This document shows, one piece after another, positions 989 to 4,699 of a DNA stretch of 34,303 nucleotides. The notes below the pieces were generated by a model, which searched no databases, was not told where the DNA came from, and worked only from the letters and a program-made list of their open reading frames with translations. Origin of the DNA: Actinomycetota bacterium (GTDB lineage Bacteria > Actinomycetota > Acidimicrobiia > Acidimicrobiales > Ilumatobacteraceae). Location of the stretch: the NCBI GenBank assembly GCA_017853375.1, contig JAFMJP010000007.1, positions 1 through 34,303 of the forward strand, given 5' to 3'. Within the stretch, counting starts at the first letter, position 1. The number at the start of each line of letters is the position of its first letter. A program made the position numbers and the translations under genes.

Positions 989-2167
989 CTACTCCTCGTC
1001 GTCGTCCATTTCTGCCGAATCGGCCTCTGCCAGTGCCGCGTCCAACTCCTTCATTGCCGTGTTATCGGCTGAGATACCTCGATGCTGCGCAAGCTCATCG
1101 ATTTCTCGCAGTGGCTTATTGACCGATGTAAACACGCGACCCGTGGTAACTGCCTTCAACTTCTTCTGCATCGCGTCGAAGTGGCGGGCAATGTCCTTGA
1201 GGTTCTTTACATAGCTTGCCCACGCTTTACCAAAATTCGTGAGCAGACGGAGCACCTCGTTGGCATTCTGCTCCATGGCGAAGCTCGCAGTGGCCTGCCG
1301 GACCACACCGAGGAACGCGTACAACGTCAGTGGCGAACAGAGCACCACACGCTTGGCTACCGCGTCATCAATCAGTGTCGGTTTGTGTTGTTGGATGAAT
1401 CCAAGCACGCTCTCGTTGGGAATGAAAAGCAATACATAGTCGAGAGCGTTTGACCCCGACTGCTGAACGTAGTCGCGTTTCTCCAATTCCTTCACGCGAT
1501 CTTCAACGTTCTTGATGAAGGCATCCTTCATGATCTTGCGTGTGTTGTCGTCTTGTGCCTCGAAGTATTTGAGGTAGTTCTCCATTGGAAACTTTGAGTC
1601 AAGATAGAGAACACGGTCGGGTGGAAGCTTGAACGTGAAGTCGGGCTTTCCGCCTGCCTCCAACTTCTCCTGCATTTCGTAGTTGATGCCGCGCTCGAAA
1701 CCAGCCTGCATGAGGATGTCGACCAACATCTTTTCGCCCCAGTTGCCACGTCCTTGGGAGCTGGACAGCACTTTGTTGAGCGCTTGCGTCTGTTGGGCCA
1801 AGCCGGCAACTGCAGTGTCGACGCTGCCGAACTTTTCGGAGTTGATTTCGCGCAACTGGCGAATCTCTGTCTCCAATCGACCCATCTTCTCGTCAATTTG
1901 TTTTTTGGTGTGGTCGATGACCTCCCCAACTTTGGTGGCCGCGGTGCTGATGGCATCCTGGCGGTCGTCCTTTGCCTGATCGGCAAGATCACGAAGCGTT
2001 TCGCCATGGATTTCTCGGATCACGTCGCGAATCTCGGCGGCGGTGAGTGTCGGCTGGGCCCCAGCGAGTGGTGCTGCAGCTTGCGGAACTGGCTGACGTC
2101 GCTGCACCACCAACACGGCAACAACAGCGATAACGAGGCCTACTGCAAGACCGATGATGATTTCCAT
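989..2167 (-). CDS. rmuC: DNA recombination protein RmuC
   Basis: 392 aa. An N-terminal transmembrane helix (about residues 2-21) is followed by a Pro/Ala linker, a long coiled coil (about 45-135) and the RmuC nuclease-like core. Family landmarks are SSQGRGNWGEKML, then PDFTFKLPPDRVLYLDSKFP and DYVLLFIPNE. RmuC belongs to the PD-(D/E)XK-like proteins; loss of rmuC in E. coli raises inversions at short inverted repeats, but its biochemical role is poorly defined. The ATG start has an AAGGAG ribosome site within a 16-nt leader shared with the gene upstream (2237-4048), with which it probably forms an operon (69-nt gap). The C-terminus is acidic. It converges with the DUF1844 gene, 34 nt between stops. 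Confidence 0.93.
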   Translation of the reverse strand: MEIIIGLAVGLVIAVVAVLVVQRRQPVPQAAAPLAGAQPTLTAAEIRDVIREIHGETLRDLADQAKDDRQDAISTAATKVGEVIDHTKKQIDEKMGRLETEIRQLREINSEKFGSVDTAVAGLAQQTQALNKVLSSSQGRGNWGEKMLVDILMQAGFERGINYEMQEKLEAGGKPDFTFKLPPDRVLYLDSKFPMENYLKYFEAQDDNTRKIMKDAFIKNVEDRVKELEKRDYVQQSGSNALDYVLLFIPNESVLGFIQQHKPTLIDDAVAKRVVLCSPLTLYAFLGVVRQATASFAMEQNANEVLRLLTNFGKAWASYVKNLKDIARHFDAMQKKLKAVTTGRVFTSVNKPLREIDELAQHRGISADNTAMKELDAALAEADSAEMDDDEE

Positions 2168-2171
2168 GAAC

Positions 2172-2187
2172 TCATTCTCCTTGATGG
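2172..2187 (-). repeat. 16-nt Shine-Dalgarno leader, copy 1 (rmuC)
   Basis: CCATCAAGGAGAATGA on the minus strand, immediately before the rmuC start. The identical 16-mer occurs before the neighbouring nuclease gene at 4053-4068. Both copies place AAGGAG at functional distance from the start. Confidence 0.8.
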
Positions 2188-2236
2188 CGTGGAATGGGCG
2201 GATACTGCTGACAAGAATGACTACGCAAGTGTGGCA

Positions 2237-4048
2237 TCAGGGTGTGACACCCTTGGTGAGCCAATATCGCCAAATCATCACCATTGCTGCCGTATCAAGA
2301 CCGCAATATCGGTAGAGCGCCTCGGAGAGCTGCATTCGATACGCGTCGTCGCCCCGGCGGCGACCGTAGATGAGCTCTTGATACGCACGCATGGCACCGA
2401 CACCGTCCGTGACTGCATCACCACCATTGTCCGCGTCGAGCGTGTCGTCCAACTGTGCCCCCGCTGTCGAATCGAGCGTCTTATAGGGATCCATCGGACG
2501 ACCTTCTGCATCTTGCGTGTAGTACTGGGCAAACCACGGGTGAGTCCAGAGGAAGTCACCGGTAGCCCAGATGCTGTCCAGCACTCGTTTGATGGAATGA
2601 CTACCGTTCATCGCTGGATGGCAGTAGTAGCGCTTTGACAGCTGCAACATGTCGAGCAAACGTGGACCTTCGGCCGGCGGCGAGTCCTCGCCCTCGACTG
2701 ACTCACGCCCAACGATGCCTTCGAACCAGTGTGCAAGAGATGCATCAAGTACACCTCGTTCACGTAATTGACGTCGCACGCCTTTGAGAGTGGACTTCTC
2801 GTAGTGGCTCCACACCACTATCGTGCCGGCCTCCCCCACAACTTTTCGCAATTCACGCACAAACTCATCGTTTGGATACACGTCGCGGAGATTCAGCCAT
2901 TGCGAGTGCACAAGATCCGAGGAGTCCGCCGAATGCAACGTATGACAGCTGAACTGGAACGCCACTTGCTCGTAGGGCTTCATTCCGGGCAAGTACGGAA
3001 CGGGGATGCGAGATGCCTCAAAGTCGATGAAATGAATGGGATACGTAACACTGTTGAGCTCCACCAACAATTGGGGGTCGAGAAACTCCTTCTCCTCACG
3101 CGCAACTCGAACCTGGTTGCGTCGCGGCGGGCCCCATGAACCACCAGCATCCACCACGTGATCCGGTAGATCAACGAGTCGATAATTGCCTGCCAGCAGC
3201 ATCTGCTGGAACACTGATTTTTGCTCTTTGGATCGATACCCCTGATGGATGTCCAGAAAATGGGGAGAATCTGTCGGCGATGGCCCCCAGCATTCTGCGA
3301 ACCCACTCGGTGTCAAGGTGTCGCCCCGAAATTCACAGTTGCGACACAGGCTTGGTGCACGTTCCGGCGCGTACTCGGTGTGCTTTCCGTCGAGGAACTC
3401 CAACAGGCTCCCCGACAGGTCCACCACATCGTCCATGAGTTTCTCGACCACGTGGGAGACATCGATGAATTCCAGGAAGTGGTCGGCAGCAAGTGCGGCG
3501 CGGTCCCCGGTGAAGATCGCACGCGGTGTGTCGCGGTCCGCATCGATGTCGTCGACCAGGTCAATATTCGCATACACACCTTGCAGATTCGTGGGCTTCG
3601 TCTTGTTCACCACACAGAGACGCGGACGAATCTCGAGACCGGGATGCACCAGCCGTGCAACCATCACTTGAAATGTGATGTCGAGAAGATACGGACGCCA
3701 CTCGCTGGCAACTTCGTCTTTCTTGGTGAGAAACTGCAGCGGATCAGCCGACTCCACGCTCGTGGCTTTGATTTCCGTCAGCACGGCGTACGAAGGGAAC
3801 ATCTCCCACCCATCGACTCGTGCTTGGTACCGGTCGTGAGAGAGTGTGACTTCGAACTGTGCAGCGGGATTTGCGTGCAACATGACGGCATGCGCAATGG
3901 CTTCGACCATGAAACCACCCTCAGCAAAGAACTCGAGCATGTCGTTGTTCTGAAGTTTGCTCGGGTACTTGGCTTTGTAGTACTTCAGCTTCTGCTTGCA
4001 CTCCACACCGAGCTTGAAATTGGACTTCGTGAGGTGGTGCTTGGTCAC
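2237..4048 (-). CDS. RecB/Cas4-like nuclease fused to DUF2779 (DEDD exonuclease-like)
   Basis: 603 aa from GTG at 4048, chosen because AAGGAG lies at the right distance and LTKSNFKLG starts the fold; an ATG at 4096 is less likely. The first half looks like a RecB/Cas4-type PD-(D/E)XK nuclease: D79, then E92-x-K94 (LTEIKA), then a QVMVAR helix. One N-terminal cysteine (C17) plus C235, C238 and C253 fits the split four-cysteine Fe-S layout of Cas4/AddB. The second half matches DUF2779: FIDFE (D342, E344) as DEDD motif I, WSHYEKSTL, LLDMLQLSK, and YCGLD (Y581-x3-D585) as a DEDDy-type motif III. It probably degrades or processes DNA or RNA, but the substrate is unknown. It precedes rmuC, another nuclease-like gene. 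Domain identity is good; residue roles are inferred. Confidence 0.8.
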   Translation of the reverse strand: MTKHHLTKSNFKLGVECKQKLKYYKAKYPSKLQNNDMLEFFAEGGFMVEAIAHAVMLHANPAAQFEVTLSHDRYQARVDGWEMFPSYAVLTEIKATSVESADPLQFLTKKDEVASEWRPYLLDITFQVMVARLVHPGLEIRPRLCVVNKTKPTNLQGVYANIDLVDDIDADRDTPRAIFTGDRAALAADHFLEFIDVSHVVEKLMDDVVDLSGSLLEFLDGKHTEYAPERAPSLCRNCEFRGDTLTPSGFAECWGPSPTDSPHFLDIHQGYRSKEQKSVFQQMLLAGNYRLVDLPDHVVDAGGSWGPPRRNQVRVAREEKEFLDPQLLVELNSVTYPIHFIDFEASRIPVPYLPGMKPYEQVAFQFSCHTLHSADSSDLVHSQWLNLRDVYPNDEFVRELRKVVGEAGTIVVWSHYEKSTLKGVRRQLRERGVLDASLAHWFEGIVGRESVEGEDSPPAEGPRLLDMLQLSKRYYCHPAMNGSHSIKRVLDSIWATGDFLWTHPWFAQYYTQDAEGRPMDPYKTLDSTAGAQLDDTLDADNGGDAVTDGVGAMRAYQELIYGRRRGDDAYRMQLSEALYRYCGLDTAAMVMIWRYWLTKGVTP

Positions 4049-4052
4049 TGAT

Positions 4053-4068
4053 TCATTCTCCTTGATGG
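4053..4068 (-). repeat. 16-nt Shine-Dalgarno leader, copy 2 (nuclease fusion)
   Basis: CCATCAAGGAGAATGA on the minus strand, ending 4 nt before the GTG at 4048. It is identical to 2172-2187 before rmuC. Confidence 0.8.
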
Positions 4069-4088
4069 GTGTGGCACTGCAGAGCCAT

Positions 4089-4115
4089 ACGCACAACGGC
4101 GCCCCGCTTGTGCGT
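4089..4115. promoter_or_regulatory. Inverted repeat, operator-like, at the nuclease promoter
   Basis: ACGCACAA and TTGTGCGT form a perfect 8-bp inverted repeat separated by 11 nt. It lies between the nuclease gene and the divergent gene at 4181, just downstream of a -10-like TATAAC for the nuclease, where a repressor would block initiation. It could instead form a hairpin in the 5' leader. Confidence 0.5.
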
Positions 4116-4119: not shown

Positions 4120-4180
4120 CCCCTATGGCAGCCTCGGCATGTGCCCTTCCTGGAACGCCCCGTGCGATGAGAAGACGGCA

Positions 4181-4699
4181 ATGACCACGCCGCTTGAGGA
4201 GCTTCGTCCGGCACGGCTCCGTCGTGAACGGGCACAGGCACGTCTCGCCAAGCACATACGCGATGGTCACTGGTTCGTGACCCTGCTGGCCACCGAGGCA
4301 ACGTCTGGAGTGGTCGATGAAGATGACAATCCGCCGTTCGTGCAATGTGCTTGGCGTGACGACCTGCAGCTACAGATCGAAACTCAAGGGGACCATTACC
4401 GACCGGTCCCCTACAGCGAATCGCAGATTCGAATACTGGACGACCTCGGATACGTAGCACCTTTCGTTCTCGGTGACGAGTTCTCCAACCGCACCATCAT
4501 GCGCAGCGGCGAGGGTTGCCATCCTGAGACGGCTGCGAAGCTGATGATCGACACGCTCATGTTCGTACATGGCGTGCATTTCCACAATTTCGCCATGGCG
4601 GTCCGCCACGGTGTGTCACATTGGACGCTCGAATGGAGGGTCAATCCCGGCAAGCGCGATCTCGAGACGGCGTTCCGAGCCCGCTACACCCAGAATTGA
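4181..4699 (+). CDS. Hypothetical protein, possibly TY-Chap-like
   Basis: 172 aa, soluble, no signal peptide. The pattern WFVTLLATE, then PPFVQCAWRDDLQLQIE, then RILDDLGYVAPF resembles the TY-Chap group (chaperone-like alpha/beta folds related to YbjN and type III secretion chaperones), which is expanded in Actinobacteria; this is a tentative family call from pattern alone. The C-terminal half has a His-rich helix (FVHGVHFHNFAMAVRHG). ATG at 4181 is preferred because a weak purine-rich site (GAGAAG) precedes it; an in-frame start at 4139 would add 14 residues. It diverges from the nuclease fusion and converges stop to stop with the next gene with no base between. Confidence 0.5.
   Translation: MTTPLEELRPARLRRERAQARLAKHIRDGHWFVTLLATEATSGVVDEDDNPPFVQCAWRDDLQLQIETQGDHYRPVPYSESQIRILDDLGYVAPFVLGDEFSNRTIMRSGEGCHPETAAKLMIDTLMFVHGVHFHNFAMAVRHGVSHWTLEWRVNPGKRDLETAFRARYTQN

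What the first reader, a model, noticed from the sequence alone, without database searches (positions are those of the whole stretch)
2237..4048. Two-nuclease fusion: Cas4-like Fe-S PD-(D/E)XK domain plus DUF2779 DEDDy-like domain
One polypeptide carries D79/E92-x-K94 with a split four-cysteine set (C17, C235, C238, C253), as in Cas4/AddB, followed by DUF2779 with FIDFE and YCGLD, a plausible DEDDy exonuclease. No function is established for DUF2779 to my knowledge. Its placement with rmuC (also linked to DNA ends and structure), its operator-like palindrome and no nearby CRISPR suggest DNA repair, foreign DNA degradation or RNA processing. It is the best candidate for an undescribed system here.
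Basis: partly seen in the sequence, partly recalled or inferred. Interest (0 to 1): 0.62.

Follow-up and report, generated by a model that had tools for sequence, protein, structure and literature searches.

The report
Cas4-like/DEDDy double nuclease beside rmuC
The gene encodes one protein with two intact predicted DNA-cutting domains, a pairing already noted in 2014; what is new here is that its relatives on mobile DNA sit among anti-phage genes, and that in this bacterial genus it always sits next to another nuclease-type gene, rmuC.

Summary
Across 35 diverse relatives D79, E92, K94, D342, E344 and D466 are invariant, C235/C238/C253 and Y581/D585 are 34/35, C17 is 31/35. A good model (pLDDT 85.7) shows a Cas4/RecE-like PD-(D/E)XK fold before a polymerase-B-type 3'-5' exonuclease fold. 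The fusion is not new: a 2014 survey (PMC3985635) called DUF2779 a presumed 3'-5' exonuclease carrying a Cas4-like DUF83 domain. No function is established. rmuC adjacency is confined to this genus (12/12 genomes), but two unrelated rmuC lineages, in opposite orientations, fill the slot; between close sister genomes rmuC was replaced while DUF2779 stayed. Plasmid and IMG/VR-contig copies lie among BREX, Qat, McrBC/Mrr, GmrSD and SbcCD genes, and all seven above-cut-off WYL-regulator genes in 30 records lie within 2 kb of DUF2779. The window protein's sister clade holds such island copies. Best reading: a DNA-end-processing double nuclease that finishes ends made by a partner, in defence or repair; which of the two applies in this genus is undecided. 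New member of a known kind.

The parts
2237..4048 (-). DUF2779 gene, 603 aa, GTG start at 4048
3149..4048 (-). N-terminal Cas4/RecE-like PD-(D/E)XK nuclease domain with C17/C235/C238/C253 (about aa 1-300)
   Evidence: fold and profile matches, conservation
2240..3046 (-). C-terminal DEDDy 3'-5' exonuclease-type domain (aa 335-603; D342, E344, D466, Y581, D585)
   Evidence: Pfam DUF2779, VIA Z 12.4-13.7 to family B polymerase exonuclease regions, conservation
4089..4115 (.). inverted repeat ACGCACAA-N11-TTGTGCGT, 41 bp upstream of the start codon; candidate operator
989..2167 (-). rmuC, 69 bp downstream and co-directional; candidate partner
   Evidence: PF02646 E=4e-64; adjacent in all 12 genus genomes where both are seen

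Best explanation
The protein is a DNA-end-processing double nuclease. The N-terminal Cas4/RecB-type PD-(D/E)XK domain, probably stapled by a four-cysteine iron-sulfur cluster as in Cas4 and AddB, cuts or resects single-stranded or frayed DNA. The C-terminal DEDDy domain, folded like the proofreading exonuclease of family B polymerases, removes nucleotides 3'-to-5'. No helicase or sequence-recognition domain was recognised in it, so it most likely acts on ends or structures made by a partner: RmuC in this genus; restriction enzymes, SbcCD, helicases or BREX-island proteins in relatives. The likely use is destruction of invading or broken DNA. Supported here: both active-site sets, the fold (predicted), purifying selection, and the WYL and defence-gene linkage of the mobile copies. 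Inferred: the Fe-S cluster, polarity, DNA rather than RNA as substrate, cooperation with RmuC, and the biological role in this genus.
For: Invariant catalytic residues and near-invariant cysteines. Model pLDDT 85.7; exonuclease region 335-603 against family B polymerases Z 12.4-13.7; Foldseek RecE and Cas4 probability 1.00; Cas4 the only PDB hit of the family profile; Cas_Cas4 in 6/35 and RNase_H_2 in 4/35 relatives; PADLOC Cas4 models at about 2e-6 in two relatives. dN/dS 0.05-0.07 among close relatives. Mobile copies beside Qat, BrxL, SbcCD-Mrr-McrBC, GmrSD, helicases; all seven WYL genes of 30 records within 2 kb of DUF2779. The window protein's clade is sister to island copies.
Against: No biochemical test. 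N-domain matches are weak by E-value (Foldseek about 0.015, profile 0.026), and the window protein itself hits no Cas4 model. The window locus is not a defence island: its flanking genes are conserved across the genus. Most chromosomal actinobacterial copies have ordinary neighbours. Defence-gene neighbours of mobile copies were not compared with a matched random-gene control except for WYL.
Confidence: 0.6

Rival explanations
1. Housekeeping DNA-repair nuclease: in these streamlined actinobacteria it trims damaged or recombination-intermediate ends, perhaps with RmuC, and has no anti-phage role.
For: Found in 12 of 13 genus genomes with conserved flanks and strong purifying selection. MrfB, a related DEDD exonuclease, works in mitomycin C repair (PMC11194089). 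A Mycoplasma bovis DUF2779 insertion mutant grew poorly with host cells, in a screen that also hit replication and repair genes (PMC7373297).
Against: Almost absent from the rest of the bacterial family and patchy in the phylum, 33/396; mobile copies sit with defence genes and WYL regulators.
Confidence: 0.3
2. The rmuC neighbour is incidental: DUF2779 and rmuC share a locus by descent and do not work together.
For: Adjacency is seen only in this genus; the other family member with DUF2779, G015, has its rmuC on another contig; convergent orientation in G011 and G012 rules out a shared transcript there.
Against: The slot is rmuC in all 12 genomes although two distinct rmuC lineages have occupied it; in G012 versus G001 rmuC was replaced (36-38% identical, inverted) while DUF2779 is 93.5% identical. 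Replacement in place through shared flanks could still explain this.
Confidence: 0.45
3. RNA-processing enzyme: the DEDDy domain trims RNA, as RNase D or RNase T do, and the PD-(D/E)XK domain is structural.
For: Foldseek also lists RNase T and ERI-type RNA exonucleases for this region.
Against: PD-(D/E)XK catalytic residues invariant in 35/35; closest folds by VIA are DNA polymerase exonuclease domains; neighbours are DNA-acting genes.
Confidence: 0.08

Closest known systems
DUF2779 family (PF11074; family F.17 of the RNase H-like superfamily, PMC3985635)
   Same: Full Pfam match; the same DUF83/Cas4-like plus RNase H-like exonuclease arrangement was reported in 2014.
   Different: This is a long-form (about 600 aa) member next to rmuC; the paper passages read do not mention rmuC, WYL or defence neighbours.
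COG2251 / TM0106-type RecB-like nucleases
   Same: Cas4-like domain plus RNase H-like exonuclease (PMC3985635); a TM0106-annotated protein aligns with aa 5-297 of the family profile (E=2e-4, probability 44%).
   Different: No TM0106-type model hit in NCBIfam; a different Pfam exonuclease family (PF13482).
Cas4 (DUF83)
   Same: PD-(D/E)XK motif, split 1+3 cysteines, fold match.
   Different: Fused to an exonuclease, no cas1 in the genus genomes searched, only weak profile similarity.
MrfB/YprB exonuclease (PMC11194089)
   Same: DEDD 3'-5' exonuclease domain; RNase_H_2 model also hits 4 of 35 DUF2779 proteins.
   Different: MrfB is DEDDh; here the pattern is Y-x3-D (DEDDy), and a Cas4-like domain is added.
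Shield anti-phage system (ShdA, RmuC domain; PMC10270631)
   Same: An RmuC-domain protein can degrade DNA and act in phage defence.
   Different: Reported only in Pseudomonas; no DUF2779 component in the passages read; the window RmuC hits the RT-associated RmuC model and, weakly, LeoBC in PADLOC.

Membership tests
DUF2779 (PF11074) | score above the curated Pfam cut-off | tested here: met
   77.5 bits against 23.3
DUF2779 (PF11074) | Cas4/DUF83-like domain N-terminal to the exonuclease domain (PMC3985635) | tested here: met
   model and fold matches for the window protein; HMM hits only in relatives
DEDDy exonucleases | D-x-E, D and Y-x3-D motifs conserved on the exonuclease fold | tested here: met
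   D342, E344, D466 35/35; Y581, D585 34/35; fold match
DEDDy exonucleases | 3'-5' exonuclease activity | not testable with these tools
   needs biochemistry
Cas4 | PD-(D/E)XK motif with a 1+3 cysteine set | tested here: met
Cas4 | recognised by Cas4 profile models | tested here: not met
   no Cas4 hit for the window protein in Pfam, NCBIfam or PADLOC up to E=1; so Cas4-like, not a Cas4
Cas4 | 4Fe-4S cluster | not testable with these tools
   needs spectroscopy
TM0106/COG2251 | curated model hit | tested here: not met
   no such hit in NCBIfam; distant N-domain similarity only
Shield | ShdA homologue as core component | tested here: inconclusive
   window RmuC hits RTasRmuC and weakly LeoBC; whether this PADLOC release holds a Shield model was not checked

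The most novel reading that the evidence does not exclude
DUF2779 and RmuC form a dyad-controlled two-nuclease immune module in this actinobacterial genus, with interchangeable rmuC partners, and DUF2779 proteins in general are unrecognised effectors of WYL-regulated anti-phage or anti-plasmid modules.
Probability: 0.22. Interest if true: 0.68.

Novelty: new member of a known kind. Interest (0 to 1): 0.43.

Why it matters
DUF2779 has no established function, yet it occurs on plasmids, among defence genes and in small-genome actinobacteria. The named catalytic residues, the WYL link on mobile DNA and the rmuC neighbour turn 'unknown function' into direct, cheap tests of immune nuclease versus repair enzyme. 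RmuC also lacks a settled role, and a retained neighbour is a lead for it.

Tried and rejected
No relative in the phage collection or, with the single sequence, in viral contigs; family alignments were needed. The PDB sequence search of the single protein gave only an E=0.19 hit. rmuC as a family-wide partner: rejected. A CRISPR adaptation role: rejected for lack of cas1 in the genus genomes searched. Pfam SIP and Antibiotic_NAT matches are below cut-off and treated as chance. A matched control for defence genes beside the chromosomal actinobacterial copies was begun but not completed because many contigs were too short; the within-record WYL test was used instead. No sigma-70-type promoter near the gene, which is uninformative for this phylum. 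The papers on BREX diversity and YprA helicases gave no mention of this architecture for the terms searched. Only six open papers name DUF2779.

Full report
WHAT IS THERE. The gene is on the minus strand, 2237-4048, GTG start, 603 aa. Pfam finds DUF2779 at aa 339-485, 77.5 bits against a 23.3-bit cut-off. The genome is a 1.58 Mb, 87%-complete assembly; its nearest named relatives are Ilumatobacteraceae/Actinomycetota metagenome-assembled genomes.

CONSERVATION. In 35 homologues (19-84% identity to the window protein) D79, E92, K94, Q127, D342, E344 and D466 are invariant; E66, C235, C238 and C253 are 34/35; Y581 and D585 are 34/35, the exception being a Comamonas plasmid copy without the C-terminal end; C17 is 31/35. 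One class-level relative (L049) has lost all four cysteines but keeps both active sites. dN/dS is 0.05-0.07 against close relatives, with synonymous sites near saturation.

FOLD. With 37 sequences the model reached mean pLDDT 85.7 and pTM 0.84. Residues 335-603 match the 3'-5' exonuclease regions of family B DNA polymerases (VIA Z 12.4-13.7, rmsd 2.9-5.0 over 162-184 residues). The N-terminal part matches RecE and Cas4 with Foldseek probability 1.00 but E-values near 0.015. The family profile's only PDB sequence hit is Cas4, E=0.026. Cas_Cas4 hits 6 and RNase_H_2 hits 4 of 35 relatives in Pfam; PADLOC Cas4 models hit two relatives at about 2e-6. D342/E344 lie on the first exonuclease strand, D466 at the end of a later strand, Y581/D585 on the C-terminal helix; D79 and E92/K94 lie on two neighbouring strands of the N-domain. 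Distances were not measured.

ALREADY KNOWN. PMC3985635 put DUF2779 in the RNase H-like superfamily as family F.17, presumed it to be a 3'-5' exonuclease, and noted that it contains DUF83, which resembles PD-(D/E)XK nucleases, as does COG2251. The fusion is therefore not new. I found no tested function; the one phenotype is a Mycoplasma bovis insertion mutant (Mbov_0804) deficient in growth with host cells (PMC7373297).

NEIGHBOURS OF THE WINDOW COPY. DUF2779 and rmuC are adjacent in all 12 genus genomes where both are found (coordinates). In ten, rmuC follows on the same strand. In G011 and G012 it is convergent and belongs to another rmuC lineage, which groups with rmuC of other family members (100/99 support), while flanking genes are the same. 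G001 and G012 show it best: DUF2779 is 93.5% identical and flanking genes 75-90%, but rmuC is only about 36-38% identical and inverted. So rmuC in this slot was replaced while DUF2779 stayed. One rmuC was found per genome (the G012 copy is split by a frameshift). Outside the genus no examined DUF2779 locus had rmuC nearby. The partnership is suggestive, not shown.

NEIGHBOURS OF THE FAMILY. Plasmid copies lie beside Qat genes and an SF1 helicase in Aliarcobacter cryaerophilus and beside WYL regulators in Aliarcobacter butzleri, Rhodoferax and Sphingobium. IMG/VR contigs show SbcD-SbcC-DUF2779-Mrr-McrBC, WYL-DUF2779-BrxL and BrxL-DUF2779, GmrSD, and UvrD and SNF2 helicases. Scans of the nearest neighbours list WYL first (7 of 121 genes in PADLOC, 6 in Pfam), then methyltransferases and restriction families. 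As a within-record control, WYL genes were sought in 30 whole records: seven pass the cut-off and all seven lie within 2 kb of DUF2779, a zone of about 7% of 2.38 Mb (about 1e-8 if independent, which is naive because two share one plasmid). WYL proteins regulate defence operons such as BREX (BrxR, PMC9122589). Most chromosomal actinobacterial copies have ordinary surroundings, often after an HD/YfbR-like gene; a few lie by DISARM-type or NERD-helicase genes. The window's genus has two WYL genes per genome, not at this locus. The tree has two deep clades (100/100); the window's clade is sister to copies from plasmids, SbcCD-McrBC, BrxL and WYL-BrxL loci.

REGULATION. The dyad ACGCACAA-N11-TTGTGCGT lies 41 bp upstream of the start codon and is unique in the assembly. 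CGCAC-N15-GTGCG is kept at the same place in six of eight relatives with variable interior, nearly so in L023, and absent in L024. It looks like an operator; the binder is unknown.

CONCLUSION. I commit to a DNA-end-processing double nuclease that finishes ends made by a partner (0.6). Linkage on mobile DNA favours defence; the stable chromosomal setting in this genus leaves housekeeping repair open (0.3).

Noticed in passing
L109 6787-8096 (G012 C141:36906-38086): The convergent rmuC of G012 is split over two frames: a real lesion or an assembly error.
   Followed up: partly
window 2168-2190 and 4049-4070: DUF2779 and rmuC have the same 15-base leader CATCAAGGAGAATGA before their start codons; AAGGAGAATGA occurs only at these two places in the window, and rmuC of L111 lacks it.
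   Followed up: partly
L082:7498-8616 and 12 other loci: In one actinobacterial family (f38) a 373-aa protein with an HD/YfbR-like domain lies directly upstream of DUF2779 in most loci; the dGTPase two genes from the Aliarcobacter copy may be a parallel.
   Followed up: partly
L061:7152-11822: A Sphingobium plasmid carries DUF2779 and a TM0106-type nuclease within about 4 kb, each with its own WYL gene.
   Followed up: partly
L144:4651-7470: A 940-aa DUF2779 protein with a long N-terminal extension of no known Pfam family.
   Followed up: partly
L049:544-2097: A DUF2779 protein that has lost all four cysteines but keeps both catalytic sets.
   Followed up: no
L019: A contig titled Bifidobacterium breve MAG carries the Ilumatobacteraceae locus at 77% identity: probably a mislabelled record.
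   Followed up: no
window 4139-4696: The divergent 186-aa neighbour has no Pfam, NCBIfam or PADLOC match.
   Followed up: no
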